From positions 124,001 through 188,000 of the forward strand of contig NC_090127.1 in NCBI RefSeq assembly GCF_023973825.1: a stretch of 64,000 bases of DNA, read 5' to 3'. This document shows, piece after piece, positions 14,100 through 55,880 of this stretch (position 1 is the first letter of the stretch; every line of letters starts with the position of its first letter). The notes under the pieces are model-generated. The model made no database searches, was not told where the DNA came from, and saw nothing but the letters and a program-made list of their open reading frames with translations. Source of the stretch: Plasmodium brasilianum (Eukaryota > Apicomplexa > Aconoidasida > Haemosporida > Plasmodiidae). The translations under genes were made by a program, and so were the position numbers.

Positions 14100-14656
14100 A
14101 AAATTTTTATATACTAATCAGTTTTTTTTTTTTTTTTCTCTTTTTGAATAAATAGCTACAATAAATACTACTACTTACGATAAGAACTCTTAAATACGTA
14201 AACTTCTCACTATAAAATAAACTCATAAAGTAATACAATAAATTACATGGTTAAAACATGATGTATAATGAAAAAAGTTCAATTAAACACACTACAATGT
14301 TTAAATTTATTTTCAACAAAAACGTACACAAATATATATAATATATATACAACTAAAATATTCCATACTTCCAATTACTTCAATAATTTCAGTACCTTCA
14401 TAATACATATTAAATAACATATTATATGTATATAAAAAAGAAAAGATGCGTGGAAAAAAAAATAATATAACGCACACGATTCTTTATATATGTTGAAAGG
14501 TGTTAAAAATAACTTCATTAATTAAGAACTACTAGTGCAAATGTGTAGAGTGGATCAGCAAATGAAAGTCAGAAATCATTACTTCATATCAGATTGCGAG
14601 TTTACACTGAAGAATGCATCTGGTTTATGATGGTCTTGATCTTCAGGACTTTCATA

Positions 14657-15346
14657 TTAGTATTTTGATCGTATGAATGTAGATTCTCTTAGTATATCAA
14701 CAAGGAAGCTCCCAACTGTAACTATATTATTATGGATCATTTCCGGTGAATATTTGATACATTTTTCTTTTTCATAATCATTTTTAACTTTTTTTATTTC
14801 ATTTTTATTGTAACACATTTTTCTTTTATCTGGATACTGTTTCGCACTGTAGACCTTCACAGACATTTCCTCACCAACTCTTTGTTCAATCCAAAAAAAA
14901 ATTTCGCCCTGCTTCAAATATTCTTCTGTTAAAACACCTTCAATCACAAATGAATTAAGACGCTTTTTTATTCTGCTAACACAGTTATTCTTGGATTCGT
15001 CGTCAACAAATTTATATCCATACTTTTTTTCAAATCCGCGTAAAACTGTTAAAATATTTTCGGTTTTCTCTATTTCTAAAAACATTTTTGCTTCATCAGC
15101 ACCATATAGCAATAATTGATACAAAAGGTCAAATGATACATTAAACTCTACATTTCCCAGTTTCTTAGCTTCTTCTGTAACATCATCCTTAAAGTATTCA
15201 TAGTTGTATTCACTCTTCTTCTTATCCTTGGTATGTGTTTTTGCAGCTTATCCCTTAAATGGACGTTCCTTCATGTCTCCAGCAGCGCACTTAGTAAGTG
15301 CACGCATAAAGAAAATTTGGATTTGTAAATAGGTATATATATTCAT
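14657..15346 (-). pseudogene. Array gene 1: P27/25-like, one premature stop
   Basis: Leftmost copy. The start at 15346 and leader (MNIYTYLQIQIFF...KCAAG) are in place, but codon 33 is TAA (15248-15250). The rest stays in one frame to 14657: NVEFNVSFDLLYQLLLYGAD, then KTENILTVLRGFEKKYGYKF, the NNCVSRIKKRLN helix, and a diverged EEYLKQGEIFFWIEQR in which the usual YC is YL. It ends about 25-30 residues short of the other type A tails. The only visible fatal lesion is the nonsense codon, but the lost Cys and altered FFWIEQ context suggest relaxed constraint. Confidence 0.82.
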
Positions 15347-15727
15347 GGCAACTAATTAATTCGTAGACAGTACAAATATTCGAGAATACGAATGAGTAAA
15401 AATAAATTTATTATTTTCTAAAGGAAAATTCTCCAAAAGAAATATATACTTAAATGTGCATTATATTAGCTATAAATATTCCAAAGTAACAGGTAAAATA
15501 AAGGCATCTAATATACACACCAACAAAAAATATATAATAAAATATATCCTTAAATGATTGGAGAAATAAAATGTTTTCTAATTCGTTGTAAAATTATTTT
15601 CTTTTATGCTTTCATTAAAATGTTTATTCATTTATAATTATATTGTATAAATCATGAGATATATCGTTTTCTATTTCAATATCTTCTTTAATTTTAAAAG
15701 CACAATAATATTTTTGAATATTTAAAA

Positions 15728-15767
<40 letters not shown>

Positions 15768-16374
15768 TGTTATGAATTAATATTGTTTTTAAAAAAAAAA
15801 AATTAAAAGTACATTAATTTTTTTTTTTTTTTTGGGATTAAAATTATTAATGAGTTCTATTAATCGATAGATTCGGCTTATATATAATTATTTCCCTTAT
15901 ATCTAAAAAAATATGCTCAAAAAAAATAGTAAATTTTACAGTATTTTTATTTTAAATACTTATAATCCATAAAATTTAAATAATATATTTTCTCCATGGA
16001 TAATAAAATTACACATCATACACATTAATCCATTACTTGGCAAAATATGTATTTTATTTACAATTAAAAAAAAATAATTCATTTAAAAAAAAAAAAAATT
16101 GCCTTATTATTCTTATTCGTACTTTGTTTAATATAGTACTATATATCTATGTTAAATAAAAAAACTATGGAGCTTTTCTGTCTTTTTTTTTTTATTATTT
16201 TAACTGCATTTAATTTAACTTCAACTTTAGTTACGAACATGTAAAAAATTAAAATTCACAATTAAAAAAACTCAAAGAACTGTAAATAAATAACCATATG
16301 GTTAAAAAACTATGTATGGAGAACAAAATGTTCAATTTAGTACCTTACAATTTAAAAATTCTTTTAACGAAAAC

Positions 16375-16380
16375 GTACAC
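16375..16380 (-). promoter_or_regulatory. GTGTAC sites, candidate AP2-G motifs (representative)
   Basis: GTACAC on the plus strand (GTGTAC on the coding strand) occurs at the homologous spacer position at 14324-14329, 16375-16380, 34862-34867, 38981-38986, 45352-45357, 47724-47729 and 53996-54001; 32812-32817 has GTACAT. A second set, the palindrome GTGTACAC, lies just past stop codons at 22972-22979, 30989-30996 and 41256-41263. The GTAC core matches the known binding motif of the sexual-commitment factor AP2-G. A role for these sites is inference; each lies about 1 kb upstream of the next gene's start. Confidence 0.35.
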
Positions 16381-16625
16381 ACATACATATGGGGAACAAG
16401 AATACTACAAAAGTTCTAACACTTAAACGTTTTCATTAACTTTTTAATACAAACTTAATTACATACTACTCGTATAAAAAAAAGGGCTCAACGAGAAAAA
16501 AATTATTTAGCACTCACAATTATTTATATATATTTAAGGACGTTCAAGAAAAAATCATTAAAATATTAATGGAAAAATAATGCTCTATACATTATGCCGA
16601 GAGGAGAAGCGATGAAAATCTGGTA

Positions 16626-17693
16626 TCAGTTTTTATCTTCAGTAGTCGAGTTTTCTTTTTCTTTAACTTCAGGTTTTTTATGGCTTGAATCTTCTGGATT
16701 AAAATATATTGGATCTAGAGGTTCAAAATGACTTGGTTTTTCTGATTTTTTATGGCTTGGATCTTCTGGATTAAAATATATTGGATCTAGAGGTTCAAAA
16801 TGGCTTGGTTTTTCTGATTTTTTATGGCTTGGATCTTCTGGATTAAAATATATTGGATCTAGAGGTTCAAAATGGCTTGGTTTTTCTGATTTTTTATGGC
16901 TCGGATCTTCTGGATTAAAATATATTGGATCTAAAGGTTCAAAATGACTTGGTTTTTCTGATTTTTTATGGCTTGGATCTTCGGGTGCTACGGGTAAGAC
17001 CTTGGATGGTACTACTATTTTGGATGTTCTTAATACATCAAGAAGGAAATTCTCTACTGAACTAACAACACCATCTACCATTTTTTCGGAAAGTTTTACA
17101 CTTCTACCTTTTTCTATAGAACCTAAAAGTTTTTTTATTTCAGCTGCATTATGACACATTTTCTTTTTCTCTTCCTCTGTTTTTAGTTTATCTACCTTAG
17201 CAGACATTTCCTCATCTAATCTTTGTTCAACCCAAAAATATTTCTGTGCTTGTTTGCAATATTCTTCTGTTAAAATGTTTTCCATTACAATCAAATTAAG
17301 ACGTCTTTTTATTCTGCTAACACAGTTATTCTTGGATTCGTCGTCAACAAATTTATATCCATACTTACCTTCATATTCATTAAGAATTTCTAATATCTTT
17401 TCAGTTTTCTCAATTTCTAAAAATAGTTTTGCTTTATCAGCACCATTTGGCAATAATTTATACAAAATGTCATTTGAAGCATGAAACTCCACATCTCCAA
17501 GTTTCTTAACTTCTTCCTTAACTCCGCCATTCTTCAAATGATCATATGTATATGCATAAGGTAAAGCATTTTCTGTTTTTAAATTTAGTCCCTTCTTCTC
17601 GGCTTCCTTCATGCATCCAGCTGCGCACTTAAAAAGTGCGTATATAACAAAAATTTGGATTTGCATAAATGTATATATATTCATAGCGAACAA
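16626..17693 (-). CDS. Array gene 2: P27/25-like protein with C-terminal repeats
   Basis: Intact type A member, 355 aa, about 100 residues longer than its paralogs. Leader is residues 1-26 (hydrophobic 10-21, KCAAG at 22-26). The core runs from KEEVKKLGDVEFHAS (about 59) to FLLDVLRTS (about 216-224), with conserved Cys at 124, 146 and 180 and YFWVEQRLDEEMS at 152-164. Residues 238-333 are four near-perfect 24-aa repeats (EDPSHKKSEKPSHFEPLDP followed by IYFNP), then a fifth partial copy and an acidic end. The tail is Pro/Ser/Lys/Glu-rich and probably disordered, a composition typical of antigenic repeats. Other members have a short, similar E/K/N-rich end, so the repeat looks like an insertion into an existing tail. 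Confidence 0.88.
   Translation of the reverse strand: MFAMNIYTFMQIQIFVIYALFKCAAGCMKEAEKKGLNLKTENALPYAYTYDHLKNGGVKEEVKKLGDVEFHASNDILYKLLPNGADKAKLFLEIEKTEKILEILNEYEGKYGYKFVDDESKNNCVSRIKRRLNLIVMENILTEEYCKQAQKYFWVEQRLDEEMSAKVDKLKTEEEKKKMCHNAAEIKKLLGSIEKGRSVKLSEKMVDGVVSSVENFLLDVLRTSKIVVPSKVLPVAPEDPSHKKSEKPSHFEPLDPIYFNPEDPSHKKSEKPSHFEPLDPIYFNPEDPSHKKSEKPSHFEPLDPIYFNPEDPSHKKSEKPSHFEPLDPIYFNPEDSSHKKPEVKEKENSTTEDKN
16695..16982 (-). repeat. 72-bp in-frame tandem repeat (4 copies) in gene 2
   Basis: Four 72-bp units coding for 24 aa each, differing by a handful of bases (for example GGATCTAGAGG versus GGATCTAAAGG, TGGCTTGG versus TGGCTCGG on the plus strand). The near-identity indicates recent expansion. 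No other member of the array carries it. Confidence 0.95.
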
Positions 17694-18390
17694 TAAATTT
17701 GTTCCTTAAAAATTTAGGAATTCGCAAATAAAAATAAATTTATTATTTTCTAAAAGCAAATGTGCTAAAATAATGCAATGCACTTATACGTATGATTTAT
17801 TTTATTTATAAACTTTCCGGGCGTATGTAAAAATATATAATACACAGTAATAAAATTAATACAATAAAATATAAAACTTTTATTCGTTTAAAGGAAAAAT
17901 ATTTTTTTTAAAATTCGTTTAAAATTTATATTTTCCTATGGTTAAGAAAAAAGTTTATGTATTACACTCTTATATATATAATAAGATATGTAGTTTTATA
18001 TTGATGTATCCCCTATTTCGTTTAAATTCTTAAGTGAATCTTAAAATTTAAAATAAAAATAAAATTTTTTTTTTTTTGTGTCATAAATTAATTACAATTT
18101 AAAAAAAAAAATAAAAACACATTAATTTTTTTTTTTTTTTAAGTTTAAATTCTTAATTTATTATGAGTTCTATTTCAACATATATTTATTTTATATATAT
18201 TATTCTAGTTTTTCCAAAAAAAAAATAAGCTCAAAAATGCGAGCAAAATATATAACATTTTTCCTTTAAATATATATTTCTGAACTAGATATATTACACT
18301 TGTATTTTTCTTTATGATATAATAAAATTGTGCATTAAATGTCTGCACTTCGTTTTAACTAGATAAAAATAATATATAGTTTATAAACAA

Positions 18391-18430
18391 TTGGAAAAGG
18401 AAAAAATTCCTTTACAAATACAAATATTAC
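18391..18430. promoter_or_regulatory. Recurring spacer element with small inverted repeat
   Basis: Here the sequence is GTTTATAAACAATTGG then AAAAGGAAAAAATTCCTTT. AAAGGAA and TTCCTTT form a 7-bp inverted repeat around an A-rich loop. Equivalents occur at about the same place in most spacers (near 20415, repeated near 20490, and near 24455, 30450, 43020, 45020, 49480 and 51580), with decay in the CPYK-subgroup spacers (34535, 36600, 38655). Function unknown: promoter element, replication or recombination site, or simple inheritance from the ancestral unit. Confidence 0.45.
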
Positions 18431-18951
18431 TATTTTTTTGATTCCATTTTCAGTAATATAGTAGTAAATAACTAGGTTAAATAAGAAATAAAAGACCTTA
18501 TTGCTCTTTTTTCATTTTTTATTAAATGAGTGCACTTCGAACTTACTTTAAAAATTCTTAAAAACATAAAATTCAAGATTAAAAAAACTCAAAGAAATGC
18601 AATAAAATATTATTTTGTTAAAAAATAAAATGCATTATGAAAAAAGTAAAGTTAAATATACTATACAAATGTATCAATATATTCTTAATGAAAAACTACA
18701 CATTATATAAGTGAAATAAAAAAAAATTCAAAAGTTCTCTGCACATTTATATTTTCTGTGCTGCTTTAATTCAAACTGAACATAAATATGTAAAAAAAAA
18801 AAAAAAAAGAGCAACGAAAAGAGAAAAAAAGTAATTTAACACGTACGACATATTATATATTTTAAAAATTGTTAGGAAAAAACTTTAAATTATTGAATGA
18901 AAAATAGTGATATACACATTATAAGTTGGCTTTGCAATCTAAGTTATGAAT

Positions 18952-19718
18952 CGGTTTTTCTTATCATTAATCGAGTTTTCATAAGGGGGTTCACTATTTT
19001 TATGAGGTTTGTCTTCATGTTTTTCGGGTGACTGTTTACATTGTACTTTTTTTGGATTATTTTAAAACATCTAAAAGGAAGGACACAAGTGTAGTAACAT
19101 TATTGTATATCATTTCTTCTGAAAGTTTTATACTTATACCTTTTTCCAAAACACATATGAACCTTTTAATTTCAGATTTATTTTTGCTCATTCCTTTTTT
19201 CTCCTAACTTTTCTGCTTATTTAGAAAAAGAGCCATTTCCTCATTAACTCTTTGTTTAATCCAAAAAAAATTCTCAGCCTGCTTGCAATATTCTTTTGTT
19301 AAAACATCTTCAATTACAATAAAACTCAGGCATTTTTTTATTTTAATGATACAGTTATTCCTGTATTCGTCATCATTAAATTCATACCCATACGTCACTG
19401 GAATTTATTCAAAAATATATAAAATATTTCCAGGTTTCTCTAATTTATAAAATATTTTTCCTTTATCAGCACCATATATTAATAATTAGCACAAAAAGTC
19501 AGTTGATGCATTAAACTCTACATTTCCAAGTTTTTTAATCTCTGTAACTTGACCAGTCATCATATAATCATACAAGTAGTCATAGGAAAGCTTTTAATAA
19601 TTATGAAATGTTACCATTCCATTATGTCTAGTATTAGGTGCTCTGAATTTCCAGCTGCACATTTAATAATTGCGTATAAGAGGAAAACATGGATTTGTAA
19701 AAAGGTATGCATATTCTT
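18952..19718 (-). pseudogene. Array gene 3: heavily degraded P27/25-like copy
   Basis: The start codon is destroyed: the usual CAT on the plus strand is CTT at 19716-19718 (ATG to AAG). The leader is still readable (MHTFLQIHVFLLYAIIKCAAGN), followed by multiple stops and frameshifts. One open piece remains (19204-19398) with TYGYEFNDDEYRNNC, EYCKQAENFFWIKQR and VNEEM. Further readable fragments lie down to about 18952. The MC motif reads GMSKN, so that Cys is also lost. This is the most decayed copy of the array. Confidence 0.85.
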
Positions 19719-21043
19719 GGCTAACAATAAATTTGTAAAAGAAAAATTAGGAAGAACATGAATCAAAATAAATTTTTTTTATTTAAGAATATTAAGCAAA
19801 ATTCTCTAAAATAATGCACTTAAATGTTTTATATGTGTACACATTCTGCAATAGTAGGTAAATAAATTAACTAGAATGCAGCAATAAATTTAAATGATAA
19901 AATAAAGACTTCAGTATTTTAAAGAAATAAAATATATTTTTAATATTCTTAAAATTTATAATTATTCATGATTTATGAATAGAATTCATTTAGATGAAAC
20001 CATAATATGTAAATTATATATGTTGTTCCATATTTCTAAGCCTTGTTTCAATTGTAAAATATTATGTTTAGTAATTTTTGAAAGGAAAAAAAAATGATTT
20101 TCTTTTTTATTATGAATTAATTTTCATTTTTTTTAAAAAAGCAAAAATGAATTATTAACTTTTTTTCTTTTTATATTTGAATTCTTAATTATTGTAAGTT
20201 TTTTTATTCCATGATAGATGCCTATTATATATATTATTATGGTTTCGCTAAAGATATATTCTGAAATATACTAGTAATGTAATTAACATTTTTCTTTTAA
20301 ATGGATAGTTCTAGGCAAGTAAAATTATATCAGTACAGTTACTGTATAGTAAAATAAAATTATGCATTAGATATATCTCCTTCACCTATTTATAGACAAG
20401 AAAATATATCCTTTATAAACAATTAGAAAAGGAAAACATTCCTTTATAAAATGCAAAATTACAGTTATATTTCTTCATATCGTTTAAAAGCACTTCGAAA
20501 AGGAAAAAATTCCCTTATAAAGACAAATAATTACTATTTTTTTTGTTCTATTCTTATTATCTTACTATATTTCTATATTAAACAAGAGATATGAGAAATC
20601 TATAACTCTTTATTTTTATTAAATAACTACAGTTCACTTCAACTTAAGTTACGAATTCATAACATAAAATTCACAATTAAAATGACTCAATAAGATATTC
20701 AAAAAAAATATATGTGGTTAAAAAAGAATGTATAATGAATACATATCAATTAAATACAATTCAAAAGAATAAATTTATTTTTAAGGAAAACTCACAAATT
20801 ATAGAAATATGGACTATAAACATATGTCAAATATTCCATAAATTTGATATTTATAATATCTTCTCAATGAAGGTTTAACCGTGTATTATACATGTTTAAA
20901 AAATAGAGATATACAGATATAAAAAAAACTATTTAACCCTCACAATTATTTATGTAGTTTAAGACGTGTTAGAAATAAGTTTAAATTATTAATAGGATAC
21001 TCGCATTATATATATTATTCGGAATGGATAGGAAAGGAAGAAC

Positions 21044-21792
21044 TTGCATTCCCTTTTCTTGTCAGTAGTTCTGTTACTACCTGGATCTTCTGGTTTAATG
21101 GGTAAACTTTAGGATTGTAAAATTATTTTTTACTTCTTATTACATTATTGAGGAAGTTTTCAATTGTAATAACAGTACTGTCTTTAATTCAATCTGGTAA
21201 TTTTATATTTCTTTTTCTAAAATACATAAAAGTCTTTTTATTTCATCGTCGTCATTACCCATTATCCTTTTACCTTCATCAGTTTTTTGCTTATCTACCT
21301 TAACGGACATTTCCTCATCTATTCTTTGCTCAATCCAAAAATAATTTTGAGCTTGTTTGCAATATTTCTCTCTTAAAACACCCTCAATCACGATTGAATT
21401 AAGACACTTTTTTACTCTGTTAACACAGTTATTCTTCGATTCTTCGTCAACAAATTTATATTCATACTTTTTTTCAAATCCTCGTAAAACTTTTAAAATA
21501 TTTTCGGTTTTCTCTATTTCACTAAATATTTTTTTTTTTATTAGCACCATGTGGCAATAATTGATACAAAAGGTCAATTGATGCATTAAACTCTACATTT
21601 ACAAGTTTCTTAATTTCTTCTCTAAGGAGGCCACTCTTATAATAATCATTTGTATTCGTAGTTCTTATCACCCACTCTAACTGTTATGCGCTCCTCTATG
21701 TTAGATTCTTCTTCGTTCATGCATCCATCAAAGCACATAAAAAGTGCGTATATGACGAAAATATGGATTTGTATAAACGTTTATATATTCAT
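21044..21792 (-). pseudogene. Array gene 4: frameshifted P27/25-like copy
   Basis: The start codon (21790-21792) and leader are present. The N-terminal part then breaks before the core. The open piece 21203-21586 covers SEIEKTENILKVLRGFEKK, NNCVNRVKKCLN, EKYCKQAQNYFWIEQR and IDEEMSVKVDKQKT. There is a frameshift around a T-run near 21531-21540 and another before the C-terminal helix, after LLCILEKE. The MC motif is MGND, so that Cys is lost. The 3' end position is approximate. Confidence 0.82.
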
Positions 21793-23014
21793 AACTAATA
21801 ATAAATTTATAGATGGAAAATTATCTAGTATGTAAATAAAAATAAGTTTATATACTAAAAGTATTCCAAATTCTCTAAAATAATGCACTTATTGATGCGT
21901 TATATTATCTATAAACTATAGAGTACTTAAAAAAATATATATGCTATTCAGAGATAAAAATTTCTATAGTATAATACAAGAATTTCAATAGATTATAGGA
22001 ATAAAATATTTTTTATTTAGTTGAAAACTCATTCTTTCATAATTAAAAGAAGGGTTCATTTATATATATCAGTATTATATATATATTGCTAAATTAATGG
22101 TTTTATATATTAATATATCCCTTTTAATTTTTGTATTTAAAATGGTATGTTTGAAAAATTTTGAAAAATAGAATAAAAAAAAAAAAAAATTCATTATTAA
22201 TTTTTTTGTGCCTTTTAAATTTAAATTCTTAATTATTATAATTTTATTCCTTAATAGATGCCTTTAATATAAATTATTCTTGTTTTACTAAAGATCAATT
22301 ATGCTGAAATACTCCAGCAAGAGATACAACCATTTTCTCTTTTGAATAATTTTTTGTAAGATTCAAAAATTATAGCTGCATTTTTTCCTCATAGTAAAAA
22401 AAAAACTACGCATTAATTATATTACTTCACTGATTATTAAGAGAAATATAGAGTTTATAAACAAAAGAAAAAAATATTTTATAAATATAGAAAATTTAAT
22501 TTTTTTTTCATCTAATTTATTTAATATCTTTTTATATATCTTGGTCAAAAGAGAGAACATATCATATATCTACTTTTTTTTATGCATAAAAAAAATACAT
22601 TTTCACGTTAACATAAGTTACGAATTAGTAAAAACGTAAAATTCATAATTAAAAGGAGTCATAAAAAAATGCATTAAATTATGTAGTTAAAAAAAAATGA
22701 TGCACGAAGAAAAAAGAACAATTAAAAGAACTATACAAAATTATAAATTTATTTTCAACAAAAAATTGCATAATATATATATGAATTAAAGTGCCTCAAA
22801 AGATCTATCCTCATCCATATTTTCCGTATCGCTTTAATGCAAAGATAAAAATAAATTATGCATAAAAATTGGAAGAGAACATAAGAGAAAAGCATCCTTA
22901 AGTACAAATAATTATTCATACATCTTAAAGCGTGTTACAAAAATATTTGAATTATTAATAGAAAAATAGTGGTGTACACATTATAACGAGTGATTTGGTT
23001 ATCCCAGTAGTGAG

Positions 23015-23791
23015 TCAGTTTTTCCTATCAGTAATCGAGTTTTCTTTAAGGGATTCATATGGTCTACGTGGTTGATCTTCAGGATTTTTGGGTATTTTCA
23101 TGGGTTCTTCATTTATGGTTATTCTTAAAACATCAAGAAGGAAATCTTCAATTGTAATTATGGTATTTTCAATCATTTCTTCAGAAAATTTTATATTTTT
23201 ATCTTTTTCTAAAACACTTATAAGTCTTTTTATTTCGGTTTCATTATAACAAATGTCTTCTTTCTCCTTCTGACTTTTTTGGTTATCTATCTTAAGGGAC
23301 ATTTCCTCATCTACTTTTTGTTCAATCCAAAAATATTTTATAGCTTGTTCGCAATATTCTTCCGTTAAAATACCTTTAATTACGATTAAATTAAGACGCC
23401 GTTTTATTCTACTAACACACTTATTCCTGGATGTGGTATCCTTAAAATTGCATCCTTCCATCAATTCAATTTGTTTAACAACATTTAAAATATTTCCAGG
23501 ATCCTCCATCATATGAAATATTTTTGCTTTATCTGTACCATACTGCAATAAATAATACAAAAAGTCAACTGTTGCAAGAAATTCTATATTTCCAAGTTTC
23601 TTAACTTCTTCTTTGACTGGGCCAATCTTCAATAGATCATATTTGTATACATGAGGTGGGGAATTTTCTGAATTTAAACTCTGTTCCTTTGATTCACCGT
23701 TCTTCATACTTGCAGAGGCGCACTTAATATGTGTGCATAGGACGAAAAAGTGGATGAATAAAAAGGTGTATATATTCATGACGAACAACAA
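23015..23791 (-). CDS. Array gene 5: P27/25-like protein, type A
   Basis: Intact, 258 aa. The leader starts at one of two in-frame Met (MLFVMNIYTF); the paralog-consistent start is Met5. The hydrophobic stretch ends at HIKCAS (residue 24 Cys). The core has Cys 125 (NKCVSRIKRRLN), 147 (EEYCEQAIKYFWIEQK) and 181 (ICYNETEIKRL), plus an extra Cys 114 (EGCNFKD) not seen in neighbours. The tail after FLLDVLR is Pro/Glu/Asn-rich and hydrophilic. No membrane segment other than the leader and no RxLxE motif near it, so it is predicted to be secreted rather than PEXEL-exported. Confidence 0.85.
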   Translation of the reverse strand: MLFVMNIYTFLFIHFFVLCTHIKCASASMKNGESKEQSLNSENSPPHVYKYDLLKIGPVKEEVKKLGNIEFLATVDFLYYLLQYGTDKAKIFHMMEDPGNILNVVKQIELMEGCNFKDTTSRNKCVSRIKRRLNLIVIKGILTEEYCEQAIKYFWIEQKVDEEMSLKIDNQKSQKEKEDICYNETEIKRLISVLEKDKNIKFSEEMIENTIITIEDFLLDVLRITINEEPMKIPKNPEDQPRRPYESLKENSITDRKN

Positions 23792-39291: not shown

Positions 39292-40023
39292 TCAACTTTT
39301 TTTAGGAGAGTCTTTGGGTGTTTCTTTAATTTTTGATGTTCTTAATACGTCAAGAAGGAAGTCCTCAATTGTACTTACAGTATTAGCTATCATTCCTTCT
39401 GATAGTTATATGCTCCTACCTCTTTCTAATTTGCTTATAAGACTTTTTATTGCAAGTTCGTTTTGGCACATATTCCTTTGCTTGTCATCAGTTTTTTCTT
39501 TAAATACCTTAACGGACATTTCCTCAATTACTCTTTGTTCAATCCAGAAATATTTTTGAGCTCGTTCGCAATATTCCTTTGTTAAGATACCTTCAATTAC
39601 AATTAAATCAAGACGCTTTTTCATTCTATTAATACAGCTATTTCTGGATCTCTCATCCTTAAAACTATATCCAAGGTGTTTCATAAAATAAAGAATAGGT
39701 AATTCAAGATAATCGAAGCTTATTCTTGAAAATAGTTCTCGTTTGTCTGTTTTATCTGCCTTGTGTTTGTTGAGAGGCAATAATTCCAAAAACAAAAAAT
39801 AAATTGTTGCTTGAAACTCTATATTTAGAAGTTCTATAACGTCTTCTATTACAATACCCTTCGGCAAAGGCTTATAAATTAATTTATATGGGCATTCTCC
39901 TCTGTTACGTGTTGTTATCTTTTCAATATGATCAGGGTAATTTTCTTTTACGCATTCCGCAGAGCACTTAATAAATATATGTATTCCTAAAATTTCGATT
40001 AGCAAAAATATATATATATTCAT
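39292..40023 (-). pseudogene. Array gene 13: P27/25-like, C-terminal nonsense codon
   Basis: Open from 40023 through the leader, CPYKLIYKPLPKG, NSCINRMKKRLD, EYCERAQKYFWIEQR and MCQNELAIKSL to RGRSI. There an AAA-type codon is TAA (39406-39408), just before LSEGM. After the stop the frame continues to a natural end at 39292 (DSPKKS). The N-terminal leader and the SAECVKE to CPYKL segment are nearly identical to gene 11, suggesting recent copying. A product lacking the last helix (about 37 codons) could still be made. Confidence 0.82.
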
Positions 40024-42712: not shown

Positions 42713-42979
42713 ATAAAATATATTTTTTTGTTTTAAATTTTATTCTTTTTTTCTAAAAGAAAAAAGAAAGCATATATTAATTTTTTTTCTTTTTAATTTT
42801 AAATTCTTCCATATTATTATGGCATTTATACCACGATAGATACCTTATATTTTTCCTGTTTTCCGAAGTATGATCAAAAATAATAACAAAATATATAGAA
42901 TTTTTCTTTTAAAAAAATATTTCAAACTAAAAAAATTATAGCTATATTTATAGCATGATAAAATTTAGCATTAAGTAAT

Positions 42980-42989
42980 CCCCCCCCCC
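42980..42989. repeat. Run of ten C
   Basis: A C10 homopolymer in DNA that otherwise has almost no C or G runs. It lies where other spacers have short C runs before the TTACCAATTACTA-type block, so it is an expanded version of a shared motif. Confidence 0.85.
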
Positions 42990-45357: not shown

Positions 45358-45388
<31 letters not shown>

Positions 45389-45611
45389 GTCAACAAAAAT
45401 AATTCATACGTTCTGTGCACTTCCACATTTTATAGGAATATTTCATAAAGACTTAATACTACAAAATATGTATAATAAGAAGGGAAAAACCTTAAACACT
45501 CACAATTACTTAAATATTTTTAAATGTGTTAGAAAAAACTATAAATTTATTTATAGAAAAATGCTGGTGTCCCCATTATGCTCAGGTGACAAAAAAAGGT
45601 GTATAATCTGT

Positions 45612-46409
45612 TCATCTTCTATTAAAACTAGGGCATCCGTGTCCACGATCAAAATCTATATTAAAATCTGGTATTTCTGGGGACGTATCATCATCTGGTT
45701 TCATTGGTAAGTCCTTAGAAGGTACAATAGTTTGTGCTTTTAGGAAATCTAAAAGGACAGCCCTAGCTATACATACGGTATGAAGTATCATATCCTCTGT
45801 TAAATGCACATTTCTATCCTTTTCATAAGTACATATAAGTCTTTTCATTTCTTCGGAATTACGACACACATTTTTTTTATCTTTGAATGTTTTTGCCTCA
45901 TCCATCTTAACTGACATTTCCTCTTCTAATCTTTCTTCTATCCAAAAATATTTCTGTACTTTTTTACAGTATTCTTCTGTTACATATTCCAAACCTAGAA
46001 AATAAAGAAGACGTCCTTTTATTCTTCTAACACATCCTTCTCTAGCACTTTCATCAATAAATCTAAATGAATATTTATCTTCAAATTCACGAACAGTATT
46101 TAAAACAATGTCAGTATTCTTTATTTTATCAAAAATATCTACTTTCTGTTTAATGAGAGGCAATAAGTGGTATAACACATCAGCAGACGCATGAAACTCT
46201 ACATCTAGCCATTTCTTAACGTCTTCTCTAGGGGGGCCATTCATATAATGTTCATATTCATATTCATACTTCTTATCTTCTGCAGTATCTGTTTTGCGAA
46301 CCTCTACCTTAGATTCATCTTCCCTCATACATCCAGCATCGCACTTAATCAGTGCGCTTAAGACGAAAATTTGCATTAGCAAAAGGGTATATATATTCAT
46401 GTCGAACAA
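45612..46409 (-). CDS. Array gene 16: P27/25-like protein, type B
   Basis: Intact, 265 aa (MFDMNIYTLL start; Met4 matches paralogs). REDVKKWLDVEFHASADVLYH, REGCVRRIKGRLLYFLG, EEYCKKVQKYFWIEERLEEEM and NVCRNSEEMKRLI. It shares the DDDTSPE acidic tail with gene 15 but ends DRGHGCPSFNRR with an extra Cys. The C-terminal helix has a further Cys (LHTVCIARAVLLDFLK), also seen in gene 17. Confidence 0.86.
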   Translation of the reverse strand: MFDMNIYTLLLMQIFVLSALIKCDAGCMREDESKVEVRKTDTAEDKKYEYEYEHYMNGPPREDVKKWLDVEFHASADVLYHLLPLIKQKVDIFDKIKNTDIVLNTVREFEDKYSFRFIDESAREGCVRRIKGRLLYFLGLEYVTEEYCKKVQKYFWIEERLEEEMSVKMDEAKTFKDKKNVCRNSEEMKRLICTYEKDRNVHLTEDMILHTVCIARAVLLDFLKAQTIVPSKDLPMKPDDDTSPEIPDFNIDFDRGHGCPSFNRR

Positions 46410-47020
46410 TAAATTTATTGAAACAAAATTAGAGAATAGGTATATAAATATATTTATTATATGCTAAATTTACGGAAATCCTTTAAAAAAATACATTCAT
46501 ATATTATATATATTTATTAAAATTCTACAGAGAAGAATAACAAAATATATTTAATACAAAGCAATGAAATTAATATAATAAAATAAAACTTTATGGTTAA
46601 AAGCGATAAAAAAAAGTTCTACTTTCCTTAAAATATATATTATTATATGCTTTAAAAGAGTATTCATTCATATATTATGTACTACTACATATGTCATAAA
46701 GATTTGTTTTTCAGTTTTTCCTTATCTTTGTTTTGTTTTAAATGTGTAAAAATAGTTGAAAAATTATGAAAAAAAAAAAAAAGAAAAATTATTTGTGTAT
46801 TTAAATTCGGTTTGTTTAAAAGAAGAAAAAAAAATGTGTGTTATAAATTTTGTTTATTCATTAAAAAAAAAAAAAAAAAAAAAAAAAATTTATTTTGTTT
46901 GTTTTAAATTTTGTTTATTTAAATAAAAAAAATATATTTACATCATTAATTTTTTTTTCTTTTTTCTTTTTAAATTTAATTTTAAATTTAAATTAATAAC
47001 TAATTTGAGTCCTCTTGTTA

Positions 47021-47380
47021 CCTTATATAGATGCTGTTTATATATATTATTTCCGTCTTCCGAAAAAAATATGCTCAAAAATAATAGCAAAATACATTAC
47101 ATTTTTCTATTAAAAAGTTACTTCTAGTTAGAAAAACTATTCCTATATTTTTCCTGCATAGTATAATTAAATTAAGTATTAATTATTTATCACCCCCTTA
47201 CCTTATATAGATGCTGTTTATATATATTATTTCCGTCTTCCGAAAAAAATATGCTCAAAAATAATAGCAAAACACATTACATTTTTCTATTAAAAAGTTA
47301 CTTCTAGTTAGAAAAACTTCCTATATTTTTTCTTCATAGTATAATTAAATTAAGTATTAATTATTTATCATCCCCCTTTA
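47021..47380. repeat. 180-bp direct duplication in a spacer
   Basis: Sequence starting CCTTATATAGATGCTGTTTA at 47021 recurs at 47201 with exactly 180-bp spacing and only a few differences. It covers the ATGCTCAAAAATAATAGC block that is present once in other spacers. It explains part of the longer 2383-bp unit between genes 16 and 17. Confidence 0.92.
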
Positions 47381-48114
47381 TATATTACTAGGTACTATAT
47401 ATAGTTTATAAAAAATGAAAAAATTCTTTTATAAATACAAAAATTCCTATTTTGTCGCTTCTTTTCTGCTTAATATCGCAGTGCATAACTATGTTTAAAA
47501 AAAAAAAATAACGGAACGTACGTCTCCTTCCTTTTTTTATTTTATTTTATTTTTTTATTAAATAACTACAAATTTACGTCAAGTTAAAAATTCTTAAAAA
47601 CGAAAAATTCAAAGATTAAAGACTAAAAAAGAAATACAATAAATTAATATGGGGTTAAATGTAACAAGAAAAAATGCTCAAATTATAAAAACTACAATGT
47701 ATAGATTTGTATTCAATTAAAAAGTACACACATATATATATATATATATATATGGACAACCAACGTAATTCAAACGTCCAATGAACCTCCTTAATGTCTG
47801 TGCATCATTTTTAATAAGGCTTTAAATACACAAAATATGTATAAAAAAAAAAAAAAAAAAAAAAAAGTGAAAAATTTTTAACTCACAATTATTTATATAT
47901 TTTAAAATGTGGTAGAAAAAACTATATATATTATTAGTAGAAAAATGGCCATGTTCTAATTATGCTCAGGTAGGTGGAAAAACAAAGTGTAAAATTCATT
48001 TATGTTTTATCAAAATCCAGTGAATCTGAATTTACCATCAAAATCAGAATCTGGTATTTGGATAGTCGTACCATCATAACGTTGTATTGGTAAAAATTTA
48101 AAACATAAAATTGC

Positions 48115-48792
48115 TTATACTTTTATTAAATCTAAAAGCACGCCCCTAGCTTTACATACTGTATGAAGGATCATATCTTCTGTTAACTGTACACTTCTAT
48201 CTTTTTCATAAATACTTACAAGAGCTTTCATTTCTTCAATATTACGACACATCTTTTTTTTCTCTTGCATTGTTTGTTCCTTATCTACCTTAACTGACAT
48301 TTCTTCTTCTAATCTTTCTTCTATCCAGAAATATTTCTGTACTTGTTTACAATATTCTTCTGTTATTTCTTTTAAACGTACAAAAAATAGAAGACGTCCT
48401 TTTATTCTTACATTACAATGCTATCTAGTATTTTCATCAATAAATCTGAATGAATACTTATTTTCAAAATTACGAAGAGTTTTTAAAACAAGGTCACTAT
48501 TATTTATTATATCAATAATATCATGTCCCTCCTCACTTAAAGGCAACAATGCGTATAACACATCAATAGACGTATGAAACTCTAGATCTAACCATTTCTT
48601 AACTTCTTCTCTAACGGGACCACCCTTATAATGATCATATTTGTATTCATACTTCTTATGACCTGGAGTTAATGTTCTTGAATCCTTTACTTTATAAGCA
48701 TCTTCATTTATACTTCCAGCAGCGCACTTAATAAGTGCGTATAAGACGAAAATTTGGATTTGTAAAACTGTAAATATATTCATATCGAACAA
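48115..48792 (-). pseudogene. Array gene 17: type B P27/25-like, single stop
   Basis: Open from 48792 (MFDMNIFTVLQIQIF leader, KCAAGS) to RFIDENTR, where TAG (48421-48423) replaces a codon that is Gln or Glu-like in relatives (ARQSC, AREGC). Downstream the same frame continues through HCNVRIKGRL, EEYCKQVQKYFWIEER, LEEEMSVKVDKEQT, KMCRNIEEMKAL and GVLLDLIKV to a stop at 48115-48117. It lacks the acidic tail of genes 15/16: tail-like sequence follows out of frame (up to about 48000). Confidence 0.84.
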
Positions 48793-50132
48793 TATAATTG
48801 CAGATGAAAATTTTGGGCATATGTATATATAAAAATAAATTTATTCTTTTCTAAAATTAGGTAAATGCTCCAAAATAAGGCGTTCATATATGTTATATTA
48901 TTTATAAATATTCTACAGTAACGGATAAAAAAATATATCTAATATACAACGATAAAATTAAAAGGGGGGAAATAAATTTTTAATTTACTTGAAATATATA
49001 TATATTCTTATTTATTATATGTTTTAGAAAAGCATTCATTTATATGCATATATAATTGTATTATCACATAAATCTATAAGAGTTATATCGTTTTTCATTT
49101 TTTCTTTTTCTTGTTTAGTTTTAATTTGTATAATAATGTTAAAAAATTTTGAAAAAAAAAAAAAAAAAAATTTTATTACTAATTTAATTTTTTTCTTTAT
49201 ATAAAAAAAAAAATAAAAATTATGGTATTAATTTTTTTCTTTTTGAAGTTAAATTCTTCATTATTATGATAGCTTTTATTCCATGATAGATGCTGCTTGT
49301 ATATATTATTCTCCTTTTCCAAAGAAAAATATCCTTAAAAATAATAGAAAAATACAGCATTCTTCCTTTAAAAAAATATTTCTATCTAGAAAAATTATAT
49401 CTATACTTTTTCTACATAGTATAATAAAATGAAGCATTAATTGGGTATCCCCTATTTACTTATTTTACTAGGTTCTATATATAATTTATAAACAATTGAA
49501 AAAGGAATGAATTCCTATACATATACAAAACATTGCAATTTTTTTACTTTTACGTTGTGTAATACGGTAGAACATAATTAATAAATATGAAATAATTGAA
49601 TATTTTATTATTTTTTTTTTATTAAATAATTACAAATTTAAGTTAAAAATTCTTAAAAACATAAAACTCACAATTAAAAAACGTTTCAAAAAAAAATTCA
49701 AAAAATTATTTAGTTAAAAAATTATGCATATAGAAAAAGAGTTCAATTATTTACACTACATATCATGTATAAATTTGTTTTCAATGAAAGCATATACATA
49801 TATATTATAAAATATATGAAAAACCAAAATAAACTAAAACGTTTTATGGACTTCATATTTTCTGCGAATCATTAATGAAGATTAAAAATAACACAAAATA
49901 TATGTATAAACAAATGAAAAAAAAAAAAAAAAAAAAAGGAAAAACTTTATAAATACCCACAATTACTATTTATATACGTTACAACATGTTAAAAAAAAAT
50001 ATAAATATATCAATAAAAAAAGGGTAATATCCCCATTATTTTGATGTCAGCGCGCAAACAAAAGTGTAAAAACTATTTAAGTTTTATAACGATCAAGGAA
50101 ATTAGGTTCACATTTATAGTATCCAATCTAGA

Positions 50133-50873
50133 TTATTTTTGTTTTGTTTTATCATTATTTGTGGGGGAAAGTTTATCATATACTTCAGTATATAATTTTA
50201 GGTAATCTTCAAGGAAAACCTTTGCTATACTTATAGTAAAATGGATCATATCGTCCGATAGTTTTATACTTCTACCTTTTTCATAAATACTTATAAGTCT
50301 TTTCATTTCATCTTCATTTTTACTCATTGCCTTCTTATCTTGGTAAGTTTCTTCCCTATCCATCTTAACAGTCATTTCCTCTTCTAATCTTTCTTCTATC
50401 CAAAAATATTTTTGTATTGTTTTACAATAATCTTCTGTTAATGGTTCCAAATATAGAGGATAAAGAAGACGTCCCTTTATTCTTTCAACACAAGATTCTC
50501 TGGCTTCTTCATCCCTAAATTTAAATTTATACTTATCTTCATATTCACGAACGGTATCATATATACGTTCAGAATACTCTATTTCATTAAAAAGTTTCCA
50601 TGGATCTTTAGCTAAAGGCAATAAGTGGTATAACACATCAGTTGACGCATGAAACTCTACATCTAACCATTTCATAACTTCTTCCCTAGGGGGACCAGAC
50701 TTATAATGATCATATTTGTATTGATATGTTTTATCTCCTACAGTAATTGTTTTTTGAACTTGTGGATTATACGAAGGAGCTTGATTTTTCGAGCTACCAG
50801 CAGCGCACTTTATAAGTGCGTATATAACGAAAATTTGGATTTGTATGAAGGTATATATATTCATGGTGCACAA
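50133..50873 (-). CDS. Array gene 18: P27/25-like, type B (twin of gene 19)
   Basis: Intact, 246 aa (MCTMNIYTF; Met4 is the start shared with paralogs). From Met4 on, its 243 residues are identical to gene 19. Core: PPREEVMKWLDVEFHAS, ESCVERIKGRLLYPLYLEPL, EDYCKTIQKYFWIEERLEEEM, LSDDMIHFTISIAKVFLEDYLK. The third core Cys is replaced by Ser (AMSKNEDEM). The tail is short and lacks acidic repeats. Reading the two copies base by base I find only two differences inside the coding region, both synonymous. Confidence 0.88.
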   Translation of the reverse strand: MCTMNIYTFIQIQIFVIYALIKCAAGSSKNQAPSYNPQVQKTITVGDKTYQYKYDHYKSGPPREEVMKWLDVEFHASTDVLYHLLPLAKDPWKLFNEIEYSERIYDTVREYEDKYKFKFRDEEARESCVERIKGRLLYPLYLEPLTEDYCKTIQKYFWIEERLEEEMTVKMDREETYQDKKAMSKNEDEMKRLISIYEKGRSIKLSDDMIHFTISIAKVFLEDYLKLYTEVYDKLSPTNNDKTKQK

Positions 50874-51905
50874 TAAAATTTGTATAAGAAAAATTAGGTT
50901 ATATGTGTGAATAAAAATAAATTTATTATTTTCTAAGTGGATGCAAAAGTTATAAAATAATGTACTTATTATATATATATATATATATTATATATTTATA
51001 AAGATACAAAAGTCAGTGATAAAAAAAAAACATATTTAAATTGTTCAAAGATAAAATCGATATGAATAAAATAAAACTTTAATAAATTTTTACAAAAATA
51101 AATTATTTTTTAATTTGTTTAAAATTTAAATTCTTTTCTATACTTAAGAAAAAGGTTCATATAAATATATATAAAAATATTATGTACATCATAAATATAT
51201 ATTTTATATTTCTGAATGTTCTGTTTTAATAGATAGAATTTCAAAAAATCAAAAATTAAAAAAAAAAAAAAAAAAAATATTTTTATGTTTAAAATTTTGT
51301 TTCTTTATTTAAAAAAAATATAAAATAAAATAATTACATTATATTAGTTTTTTTTTTTCTTTTTAAATTTAAATTCCTAATTATTATGAGAGCTCTTGTT
51401 ACATCATATAGATGTCGTTTATATATAATTTATTTCCTTTTTCCAAAAAAGATATGCTAAAAAATAACAGCAAAGCTCAACATTTTTCTTTTAAAAAAAT
51501 GTTTCTAGCTAGAAAAATTATAGCTATATTTTTTTACTGTGGTTTAATAAAATTACGTGTTACTAAGTAAAATATATAGTTTATAAACTATTAAAAGAAG
51601 AAAAAATTTCTTTACAAATACAAAAAATAGCTTTATTATTATTCTGTTCTGTTTAATATCGTAGTAGATAACTACGTAATAAATAAGAAATAACAACGGA
51701 ACGTTTATCTTTTTTTTTTTTTTTTTTTTTTTTTATTAAATAATTACATTTTACTTCAACTTAAAAATTCTGAAAAAAGTAAAATTCACAATCATTAAGG
51801 TAGGAAAAGAAAAGCAATAAATTAATATGTGATTAAAAAATGTATAAAGAAAAAATTTCCAATTACATATGCTACAATTTATAAATTTGTTTTAATTAAA
51901 ACGTA

Positions 51906-51908
<3 letters not shown>

Positions 51909-51952
<44 letters not shown>
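51909..51952. repeat. (TA)n microsatellite
   Basis: Perfect run of about 22 TA units at the spacer position that carries shorter TA runs in other units (for example 45363-45389 and 47732-47752). Confidence 0.9.
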
Positions 51953-51954
<2 letters not shown>

Positions 51955-52235
51955 GCAACCAAAATAATTTAAACGTTCTGTGCACTTCATATTTTCCGTA
52001 CATCGCTAATGAAGATTTAATAGAATAAAATATGTATACAAAAGAACAAAAAACTTAAAACTCTCAAAAACTGTTTATATATTTAAAAACATGTTAGAAA
52101 AAACTATAAGTTATTAATTGAAAAATGGTGCCGTCCCCATTCTGCTTATCTAAGCGGAAAAACAGGGTGTAAACTATATTTAAGTTTTACAACGATCATA
52201 GAAATTAGGTTCACATTTATAGTACCCAATCTAAA

Positions 52236-52967
52236 TTATTTTTGTTTTGTTTTATCATTATTTGTGGGGGAAAGTTTATCATATACTTCAGTATATAATT
52301 TTAGGTAATCTTCAAGGAAAACCTTTGCTATACTTATAGTAAAATGGATCATATCGTCCGATAGTTTTATACTTCTACCTTTTTCATAAATACTTATAAG
52401 TCTTTTCATTTCATCTTCATTTTTACTCATTGCCTTCTTATCTTGGTAAGTTTCTTCCCTATCCATCTTAACAGTCATTTCCTCTTCTAATCTTTCTTCT
52501 ATCCAAAAATATTTTTGTATTGTTTTACAATAATCTTCTGTTAATGGTTCCAAATATAGAGGATAAAGAAGACGTCCCTTTATTCTTTCAACACAAGATT
52601 CTCTGGCTTCTTCATCCCTAAATTTAAATTTATACTTATCTTCATATTCACGAACGGTATCATATATACGTTCAGAATACTCTATTTCATTAAAAAGTTT
52701 CCATGGATCTTTAGCTAAAGGCAATAAGTGGTATAACACATCAGTTGACGCATGAAACTCTACATCTAACCATTTCATAACTTCTTCCCTAGGGGGACCA
52801 GACTTATAATGATCATATTTGTATTGATATGTTTTATCTCCTACGGTAATTGTTTTTTGAACTTGTGGATTATACGAAGGAGCTTGATTTTTCGAGCTAC
52901 CAGCAGCGCACTTTATAAGTGCGTATATAACGAAAATTTGGATTTGTATAAAGGTATATATATTCAT
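52236..52967 (-). CDS. Array gene 19: P27/25-like, type B (twin of gene 18)
   Basis: Intact, 243 aa, identical in protein to gene 18. The two base differences are at 52845 (G, versus A at 50742) and 52950 (A, versus G at 50847), both silent. Similarity continues about 100 bp past the stop with several differences. Immediately upstream of the ATG the two genes diverge (CATGCTAAACAG versus CATGGTGCACAA on the plus strand). The homogenised tract therefore nearly matches the coding region, as expected from gene conversion rather than whole-unit duplication. Confidence 0.88.
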   Translation of the reverse strand: MNIYTFIQIQIFVIYALIKCAAGSSKNQAPSYNPQVQKTITVGDKTYQYKYDHYKSGPPREEVMKWLDVEFHASTDVLYHLLPLAKDPWKLFNEIEYSERIYDTVREYEDKYKFKFRDEEARESCVERIKGRLLYPLYLEPLTEDYCKTIQKYFWIEERLEEEMTVKMDREETYQDKKAMSKNEDEMKRLISIYEKGRSIKLSDDMIHFTISIAKVFLEDYLKLYTEVYDKLSPTNNDKTKQK

Positions 52968-53997
52968 GCTAAACAGTAAATTTTATTGAAGAAAAATTTT
53001 GATCTCTATGTAAATATAAATAAATTTGTTATTTTCGAAAAGCGAACTTGCTAAAATAATGCACTTGCGTATGCGATAAATTTTATTTCTAAAATTTTTA
53101 CAGCGCTATGTAAAAATGTATATCCAATAGAATGCAATGAAATTTATATAATTAAAATATAATTTAAACATACTAAGGGAATAATATATTTTTTAATATT
53201 TATAATTTTTTTATTCTTTTATACAAAAGAAACAAGTCCATTTATATAAATAATAATATTATTTAAATTATAATATATGTCGTTTTATATTTCTATATCT
53301 TCAGTTTTAATAGTAAAATATTAAACTTGAAAAAAAAAAAAAAAAAAAATATATATTTTTGTTTTAAATTTAGTTTATTTAAAAAATAATAAAATAAAAT
53401 TACATTAATAATTTTTTTTTCTTTTTAAATTTAAATTCTTAATTATTATGAATACTGTCTTCGTGCGTTAGATGCTATTTATATAACTCCCCCTTTTACG
53501 AAAAAAAATGTTCTCAAATACATGCAAAATATATATAGCATATTTTTCTTTCAAAAAAAATTTTTCGAAGTTGTAAAAATTATAGCTATATATTCTCTGT
53601 ATATTATAACAAATTTACTTATTGCATATTATCCAGCCTTCACCTATTATTAGGTGAAACATATAGTATATAAACAATTAAGGATAAAAAATTCATTTAT
53701 AATTACAGAAAATTTGTTTTTATTACTTCTTCTTTGTTTTATATCTTACTATATTATATCTATGCTAAATAAGAATCTACTGGAACGTTTTGATCTTTTT
53801 TTTTTTTTTTTTTTTTAATTAAATAAAGCTATAATTTACTTCAACCCAAGTTAAAAATTCTTAAAAACGTTAGGTTCTAAATAAAAGAAACAAAAAAAAA
53901 ATTCAATAAATTATTATGTAGTTAAAAAAAGATGTATATAGTAAAGATGCTTAATTATTTACAATATAATGTACAAATTTGCTTTCTATAAAAACGT

Positions 53998-54001
<4 letters not shown>

Positions 54002-54063
<62 letters not shown>
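54002..54063. repeat. (TA)n microsatellite
   Basis: Long TA run with a single phase break (TATTAT), directly after the GTACAC element of this spacer. Confidence 0.9.
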
Positions 54064-54403
54064 CAACCAAAACAATTCAAACGTTCTATACATTTCCATA
54101 TTTTCCATTCAAATTTAATATAGATTTAAAAACACAAAATGTGCATAAAAAATTCGAACAAAAAAAAAAAAAAAATTAAATATACACAATAATTTTTTAA
54201 ATATTTTAAATAATATTAGAAAAAAGATAAATTATTATTAGAAAAATAGTGATACCCACATTATGCTCAATTAGGAGGAAAAAGAAATTGTAAAATGTGT
54301 TTAATTTTTATCAGGAATGTTTAATGGGATTATCAATGTTTATATATCTCGATTATTATGTGGATCTTCACCATTATTAAAATTCAGAACATCGGGGATG
54401 ATT

Positions 54404-55096
54404 TTAGAAGGTGGAAAATGTTTTTGATTTTAGTAAATCAAAGAGGAACATCTTAGCCATACGTATAATATAATTAATAATATCTTCTGATAGTTTTATA
54501 CCTCTACCTTCTTCATGAACACCTATAATTGTTTTCATTAAATCTTCATTACGACACATTTTCTTTTGGTATAGATTACTTTTCTGACCATCTAATTTAA
54601 CAGACATTTCTTCTTCTAATCTTTCTTCTATCCAAAAATAGTTTTGTACCTTTTTACAATAATGTTTCGTTAAACATTCAAAATATAATGCACTAAAAAT
54701 GCGTGCCTTTATTCTACTAACACAACGCTCTCTGTCATCTTCATCAATAAATCTAAATGAATACTTATCTTCATATTTACTAACACCTCTTAAAACAAGG
54801 TCGGTTTGCCCAATTTCATATAATATTCTATTTTTATCATGTCCGAAGGGTAACAATGAATGCAGTACATCAACAGACGCATGAAATTCTACATCTAACA
54901 ATTTCTTAACTTCTTCTCTAACGAGACCACAATTATAATGATCATATTTGTATTCACACTCATCGCCTTCGGTAGCTGTTTCTATGTCCTCTACCCGAGA
55001 TTTAGCATTCTTCATGCATCCGGCAGTGCACTTAAAAAGTGCGTATATGACGAAAATTTGGATTTGTATTAAGGTATATATATTCATGTCGAACAT
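54404..55096 (-). CDS. Array gene 20: P27/25-like protein, type B, rightmost
   Basis: Intact, 230 aa (MFDMNIYTLIQIQIFVIYA leader, KCTAGC end). REEVKKLLDVEFHASVDVLHS, intermediate between the A (KKLGNVEF) and B (KKWLDVEF) forms. RCVSRIKARIFSALYFECL, KHYCKKVQNYFWIEERLEEEM, KMCRNEDLMKTI, MAKMFLFDLLKSKTFSTF end. It has an additional Cys in the helix after SRIK (YFECL). No acidic tail in frame, although sequence below the stop still resembles one. It is the first unit on the core-proximal side. Confidence 0.86.
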   Translation of the reverse strand: MFDMNIYTLIQIQIFVIYALFKCTAGCMKNAKSRVEDIETATEGDECEYKYDHYNCGLVREEVKKLLDVEFHASVDVLHSLLPFGHDKNRILYEIGQTDLVLRGVSKYEDKYSFRFIDEDDRERCVSRIKARIFSALYFECLTKHYCKKVQNYFWIEERLEEEMSVKLDGQKSNLYQKKMCRNEDLMKTIIGVHEEGRGIKLSEDIINYIIRMAKMFLFDLLKSKTFSTF

Positions 55097-55880
55097 TAAA
55101 TTTGTAGAAGTAAAATTTAGGAATTAGTATAAATAAAAAAAAGGTTATTATTTTCTAGAAGTATGCACATTTCCTTAAACTAATAGGCAAATGTGATGTA
55201 CGATATTAATTATTTATAAATATTCCACAAAAGGAAAAATAATACATATAATATATTCAGCAATTAATTTAATTTAGTAAAATATAACTATGACAATTTT
55301 CATGGCCATAATTTATTTTTTAATTTAATTAAAATTTATATTTTTCCATGCTTAGGAAAAAAATGACATTTATATATAATACAATTACAAATATCCTAAG
55401 ATATTTCCTTTTATAATCTTTCAATATTTTGTTTTAAATGTAAAATAATTCTTAAAATTTCTTGAAAAAAAAAAATAAAATAAATAAAAAAAATAAATTA
55501 TTAATTCTTTTTCTTTTTAAATTTAAATTTGTTTTCATGAGCATTTTTCCAATGATGGATTCTATATTATATATATATATATATGTATATTTCTCACCTT
55601 TTCGGAAAAAGATGTACCCAAATAAAATAGCAAAATATATAGCATATTTGTTTTAAAAAGATATTTTTACTCTTAAAAAATTATAGCTACTTTAGTTCTG
55701 TATTCTACAATAATATTGTGTATTTCACTCCCCTTCATTTTTTATACTAGGGAAGATAAATCGTTTATAAATAGCTAGATGAATAAAAAATTCCTTCATA
55801 AATAGAAAATATTTCACCTGCTTCGCTTCTATTTTTATTCATACCGTTACATATCTAGGTTAAAAAATTACAGAATTTTT

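What the first reader, a model, noticed from the sequence alone, without database searches (positions are those of the whole stretch)
14100..55880. Twenty-copy tandem array resembling gamete antigen 27/25
Seen: 20 head-to-tail paralogs, 13 open and 7 broken, about 2.05 kb period, all on one strand, filling two thirds of the window. Established knowledge (from memory): Pfg27 (gamete antigen 27/25) is an early-gametocyte, RNA-binding, all-helical protein, usually single-copy, and a roughly 20-copy expansion has been reported for P. malariae. Inference: this is that array, and its copy number implies selection on gametocyte biology or dosage.
Basis: partly seen in the sequence, partly recalled or inferred. 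Interest (0 to 1): 0.85.

Follow-up and report, generated by a model that had tools for sequence, protein, structure and literature searches.

The report
Secreted-looking Pfg27 gene array in malaria
A malaria parasite of monkeys carries twenty side-by-side relatives of Pfg27, a known sexual-stage protein; the array itself is known from its human twin, but here the proteins carry an export-type start and new cysteines, suggesting they work outside the parasite's cytoplasm, unlike the textbook protein.

Summary

Not found in my paper searches: (1) the copies begin with a signal-peptide-like segment that Laverania Pfg27 lacks; (2) two cysteines in 13 of 13 open copies are absent from Laverania Pfg27; (3) copies 18 and 19 are near-identical only across the gene, pointing to gene conversion; (4) a distant 21st gene on contig 4 also has such a start and also lies beside an ETRAMP gene.

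Best reading: a diversifying family moved into the secretory route, probably to the parasitophorous vacuole. Dosage is unlikely (median identity 43%). Gametocyte expression was not shown; the AP2-G motif is not enriched upstream.

The parts
14624..15346 (-). copy 1, broken (stop at codon 33, otherwise open)
16626..17684 (-). copy 2, open, 352 aa, C-terminal 24-aa repeat (4 full units; 3 in P. malariae model P0011)
19051..19712 (-). copy 3, broken, many lesions
21067..21792 (-). copy 4, broken, many lesions
23015..23779 (-). copy 5, open, 254 aa
25004..25783 (-). copy 6, open, 259 aa
27022..27804 (-). copy 7, open, 260 aa
28989..29771 (-). copy 8, open, 260 aa
31064..31804 (-). copy 9, open, 246 aa
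33136..33858 (-). copy 10, broken (stop at codon 44); the shortened model P0017 lies on 3 contigs, the longest being of P. malariae contig length
35180..35911 (-). copy 11, open, 243 aa
37254..37976 (-). copy 12, broken (stop at codon 151)
39328..40023 (-). copy 13, broken (stop at codon 206); the same shortened model P0016 lies on 3 contigs, the longest being of P. malariae contig length
41387..42085 (-). copy 14, open, 232 aa
43574..44356 (-). copy 15, open, 260 aa
45612..46400 (-). copy 16, open, 262 aa; the copy that was modelled
48067..48783 (-). copy 17, broken here (stop at codon 121); an uninterrupted 222-aa protein P0003 is in the protein database
50133..50864 (-). copy 18, open, 243 aa; near-identical to copy 19 over the gene only
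52236..52967 (-). copy 19, open, 243 aa
54404..55087 (-). copy 20, open, 227 aa; nearest to UIS3
62956..63597 (-). UIS3/ETRAMP13-like gene flanking the array
   Evidence: PfUIS3 E 2.4e-29, ETRAMP E 1.3e-16

Best explanation
The array is the P. brasilianum form of the Pfg27 locus beside UIS3, expanded by tandem duplication of a roughly 2.1 kb gene-plus-spacer unit and reshaped by gene conversion and pseudogene formation. Its proteins keep the all-helical Pfg27 fold but are most likely co-translationally secreted: an N-terminal signal sequence takes them into the ER, and the lineage-specific cysteines form one or more disulfides there. With no PEXEL motif in the expected place, the default destination is the parasitophorous vacuole. 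There they most likely act as variable partners at the vacuole membrane, plausibly with ETRAMP proteins. Shown: array, family, fold (one copy modelled), location beside UIS3, signal-like start, cysteine pattern, a near-identical tract between copies 18 and 19. Inferred: conversion as its cause, secretion, disulfides, vacuolar location, ETRAMP partnership, gametocyte timing.
Against: P. falciparum Pfg27 is described as cytoplasmic, nuclear and RNA-binding (passages), and its fold relative PFB0115w as nuclear. The signal was judged by hydropathy only, no trained predictor being available; 12 of 13 open copies lack the Lys/Arg usual in the first residues. Shuffles, run for 3 copies only, were as hydrophobic in 0.6-3.5%. 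Cys145 is absent from 2 further array proteins (P0014, P0018) and Cys179 from copies 18 and 19, so no single pair is universal, and no distance between the cysteines could be measured. The AP2-G motif GTACNC is not enriched upstream (19 found, 21.4 expected from other DNA of this genome). The order of gene and ETRAMP differs between the two loci here.
Confidence: 0.6

Rival explanations
1. Plain Pfg27: the proteins remain cytosolic RNA-binding gametocyte proteins as in P. falciparum, and the array raises dosage.
For: Same fold and 14 of 19 array-invariant residues shared with Laverania Pfg27; same neighbour UIS3.
Against: Signal-like start; the 12 distinct open copies are only 31-68% identical, median 43%, which does not suit dosage; 7 of 20 broken.
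Confidence: 0.15
2. A decaying array: expansion by recombination near the subtelomere, most copies under little selection, with one or a few working genes.
For: 7 of 20 broken; neutral-corrected omega averages 0.76, range 0.55-1.19 over 12 chosen pairs; copy number differs between P. malariae as reported and this assembly.
Against: 13 long frames persist; coding DNA is less diverged than the upstream spacer in 15 of 15 chosen pairs, one of them a near tie; core residues and two cysteines are invariant among the open copies.
Confidence: 0.2
3. A secreted, antigenically variable family, kept diverse by immune pressure rather than for a vacuole function.
For: Diverged copies, a conversion-like tract, a repeat-length difference in copy 2 (4 against 3 units), relaxed domain with a more conserved signal.
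Against: After residue 24 no 19-residue stretch exceeds a hydropathy of 1.6 in 12 of 13 open copies (copy 11: 1.75), so a membrane anchor is unlikely; no PEXEL in place; omega not above 1 on average; no evidence of surface exposure or of expressing one copy at a time.
Confidence: 0.2

Closest known systems
Pfg27 array of P. malariae UG01 (PMC5326575, passages and a figure legend read)
   Same: Same family, array on one contig; 22 copies reported, against one in P. falciparum. Named P. malariae proteins P0010 and P0014 also start with a hydrophobic segment (for P0014)
   Different: 20 copies here; P. malariae proteins P0014 and P0015 have no close counterpart in the window (best matches 49% and 85%). 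The paper counts 20 of 22 functional; by open frame I count 13 of 20 here
Pfg27 (gamete antigen 27/25) of P. falciparum and Laverania relatives
   Same: Fold, core residues, UIS3 neighbour
   Different: Laverania protein has no signal-like start and lacks the three cysteines; single copy in P. falciparum
PFB0115w / PF3D7_0202400 of P. falciparum
   Same: Reported to hold a C-terminal Pfg27-like fold; its locus tag is next to ETRAMP2, PF3D7_0202500, as the contig-4 paralogue is next to an ETRAMP
   Different: 1192 aa against 335 aa; reported nuclear, yet also listed among proteins trafficked into the red cell by alternate routes, with no specific signal shown; orthology inferred, sequences not compared
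ETRAMP proteins
   Same: Neighbours of both Pfg27-type loci in this genome
   Different: A separate Pfam family (PF09716) of small membrane proteins

Membership tests
Pfg27 domain family (PF09216) | Profile match above the curated cut-off | tested here: met
   12 of 12 distinct open copies match at E<=0.01 with no other family; 21 of 21 own-genome matches over the cut-off, 20 of them in the array
Pfg27 domain family (PF09216) | All-helical Pfg27 fold | tested here: met
Pfg27 locus orthology | Position beside UIS3/ETRAMP13 | tested here: met
   UIS3 domain at 62956-63597; P. falciparum adjacency rests on consecutive locus tags in papers
Functional equivalent of P. falciparum Pfg27 | Cytoplasmic/nuclear protein without secretory signal | tested here: not met
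   Signal-like start in the copies, absent from Laverania P0020; hydropathy only, location itself not testable
Functional equivalent of P. falciparum Pfg27 | RNA binding and regulated oligomerisation | not testable with these tools
   pI of mature open copies ranges 5.05-8.98, no verdict
Functional equivalent of P. falciparum Pfg27 | Early-gametocyte expression driven by AP2-G | tested here: inconclusive
   GTACNC motif not enriched in 20 upstream regions (19 against 21.4 expected), though 12 of 20 hold at least one; no expression data
PHIST | PHIST domain (Pfam name PRESAN, recalled) | tested here: not met
   Only Pfg27 matched among Pfam models at E<=0.01 in 12 of 12
fam-l / fam-m | Fam-L/Fam-M profile (PF12420), PEXEL, transmembrane segments | tested here: not met
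   No PF12420 match in 12 of 12; no PEXEL in place in 13 open copies

The most novel reading that the evidence does not exclude
The Pfg27 fold is at root a secreted protein of the parasitophorous vacuole that evolved beside, and works with, ETRAMP membrane proteins. The cytosolic, RNA-binding Pfg27 of P. falciparum is the derived exception that lost its signal, while the P. malariae/P. brasilianum lineage multiplied the secreted form and stabilised it with disulfides.
Probability: 0.25. Interest if true: 0.7.

Novelty: new variant of a known kind. Interest (0 to 1): 0.45.

Why it matters
Pfg27 is an established marker of early gametocytes and is read as a cytoplasmic RNA-binding protein. If the array's Pfg27-type proteins are in fact secreted, that function cannot simply be carried over to P. 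malariae, and the abnormal membranes reported for the P. falciparum knockout gain a possible link to a vacuole role of the fold. The array is also a compact case of a gene family diverging, converting and decaying between two near-identical parasites of people and monkeys, and the copy-number difference, if real, is a possible typing marker. Some public models start downstream of the signal (P0011 lacks it, though the same gene is open upstream here), which could have hidden the point.

Tried and rejected
PHIST, fam-l and fam-m membership: rejected, only Pfg27 matched. Dosage: rejected on divergence.

AP2-G control of the array: against shuffles the motif looked enriched (19 against 6.1) and GTACAC ranked 10th of 1590 six-mers. 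Against other DNA of the same genome the enrichment vanished (7.35 against 8.27 per 10 kb, P 0.73). I do not claim it.

Positive selection: raw dN/dS of about 0.6-1.3 among the 24 closest pairs shown that differ is inflated by base composition; against neutral simulations 12 chosen pairs average 0.76. No claim of positive selection.
Full report
What is there. The window is G000:C14:124001-188000 of a 31,374,054-base genome in 43 contigs. Two things identify it as P. brasilianum. The published assembly is 31.4 Mb with 14 chromosomes and 29 unplaced contigs, organelles apart (PMC9671904, passages). Proteins named 'Plasmodium brasilianum' in the protein database lie on contigs of 3,271,130 and 1,238,050 bases, exactly the lengths of C14 and C4.

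Already known. Rutledge et al. 2017 (PMC5326575; passages and a figure legend read) report 22 copies, 20 functional, in P. malariae, one in P. falciparum, and mention 17 described before. They also found P. brasilianum indistinguishable from P. malariae. In the P. brasilianum genome paper (PMC9671904) a term search of the main text found 'gamete' 0 times. Two P. malariae proteins, P0014 and P0015, have no close counterpart in the window (best matches 49% and 85%), which would account for 22 against 20. Whether that is real or an assembly effect is open. Copy 17 is broken here but an uninterrupted protein P0003 is in the database (2 contigs, the longest of 3,564,281 bases, the length on which named P. 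malariae proteins lie); the shortened models of copies 10 and 13 also reach that contig length. Differing annotation choices may explain 20 functional against 13 open.

Secretory-type start. All 20 copies have a recognisable hydrophobic N-terminal segment (copy 4 is interrupted inside it). The full-length Laverania protein P0020 (gorilla parasite, 217 aa) begins without one. The 335-aa paralogue on contig 4 has one. In 13 of 13 open copies the most hydrophobic 19-residue stretch starts at position 3-6. The segment changes less at the protein level than the domain (pooled pN/pS 0.60 against 0.88, 12 copies). In the 13 open copies PEXEL-like matches occur only at residues 87-164, in 4 of them, so export past the vacuole is not predicted from sequence. 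Against it: no trained predictor was run, 12 of 13 open copies have no Lys or Arg in the first four residues, and the P. malariae model P0015 as filed lacks the segment.

Cysteines. Cys123 and Cys145 (copy 16 numbering) occur in 13 of 13 open copies and Cys179 in 11 of 13. Laverania Pfg27 has I, I and M there, the contig-4 paralogue M, L and I. Of 19 columns invariant in the 12 array rows, 14 are identical in Laverania; the rest are one signal residue, the two cysteines and two conservative changes. Against a fixed pair: P0014 and P0018 lack Cys145, and copies 18 and 19 lack Cys179.

How the array evolves. The 12 distinct open copies share 31-68% identity, median 43% over 66 pairs. Well-supported tree clades group neighbours in the array (copies 6-8; 10, 11 and 13 with P0015; 15, 16, 18 and 20 with P0003 standing for 17), as tandem duplication would give, though several copies and the Laverania protein are unresolved and copies 3, 4, 12 and 19 were not in the tree. 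Copies 18 and 19 differ at 2 sites across the 732-base coding region while their upstream spacers differ at 28% of aligned sites; the upstream break falls at or within a few bases of the start codon, the downstream one within some 60 bases after the stop. A recent gene conversion over the gene is the simplest reading; an assembly error is not excluded. Coding DNA is less diverged than spacer in 15 of 15 chosen pairs, one a near tie. Neutral-corrected omega averages 0.76 (0.55-1.19; 12 chosen pairs): weak constraint, no sign of general positive selection. Copy 2 carries a 24-residue repeat, 4 units here and 3 in P. malariae P0011, the rest being identical over the shared part.

A 21st gene and the ETRAMP neighbours. 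The Pfam search of the whole genome found one more gene, C4:1058552-1059049 by domain, intact, and the best-scoring of all 21. The full gene is L014:4471-5478, named gamete antigen 27/25 in the database. An ETRAMP lies 4.3 kb away on the same strand. A uniform-placement estimate of both Pfg27-type loci lying within 10 kb of one of 12 ETRAMPs is about 6e-5, which ignores that both kinds of gene may favour certain chromosome regions. P. falciparum shows the same pairing by locus tags: PF3D7_0202400 (PFB0115w), reported to hold a Pfg27-like fold (PMC4053738 passage), next to PF3D7_0202500 ETRAMP2 (PMC5679621 and PMC6921578, passages). A cross-link between Pfg27 and ETRAMP10.3 is reported in P. 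falciparum gametocytes, with membrane defects in the knockout (PMC13200099, passages). Gene order relative to the ETRAMP differs between the two loci here, so a simple block duplication is not shown.

Mechanism and doubts. I read the array as a secreted, disulfide-bearing, diversifying form of Pfg27 acting in or at the parasitophorous vacuole. Secretion I hold likely (about 0.8), the vacuole and ETRAMP part less so (about 0.35). Gametocyte timing is inherited from P. falciparum and untested: the AP2-G motif GTACNC (PMC7083873, passages) is as common upstream of the array as elsewhere in the DNA of this genome that I held. Passages on P. falciparum Pfg27 itself place it in cytoplasm and nucleus (PMC4053738, PMC4552133, PMC2880792). 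That I saw no paper reporting the signal, the cysteines or the conversion rests on ten searches of an open-licence library, of whose hits only passages of a few papers were read, and on no supplementary files.

Noticed in passing
window 58010-58804, minus strand: A gene between array and UIS3 with a hydrophobic start and a PEXEL-like RILSQ motif, interrupted by one in-frame stop at 58499-58501; no Pfam family at E<=0.07.
   Followed up: partly
window 3547-4212, minus strand: Weak fam-l/fam-m-like match (PF12420, E 0.0011, below cut-off): the array may lie between a subtelomeric gene-family region and UIS3.
   Followed up: partly
window 13125-13445 and 55876-56213: Short-period repeat blocks (43/129-base and 10-base units) lie near each end of the array, which might mark its borders.
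   Followed up: no
window 48067-48783 (copy 17): The public P. brasilianum model P0005 (187 aa) leaves out a stretch around the stop, apparently by a predicted intron; likely an annotation artefact.
   Followed up: partly
G000:C4:1058471-1059478 (L014:4471-5478): Single distant Pfg27-domain gene beside an ETRAMP, likely counterpart of P. falciparum PFB0115w.
   Followed up: yes
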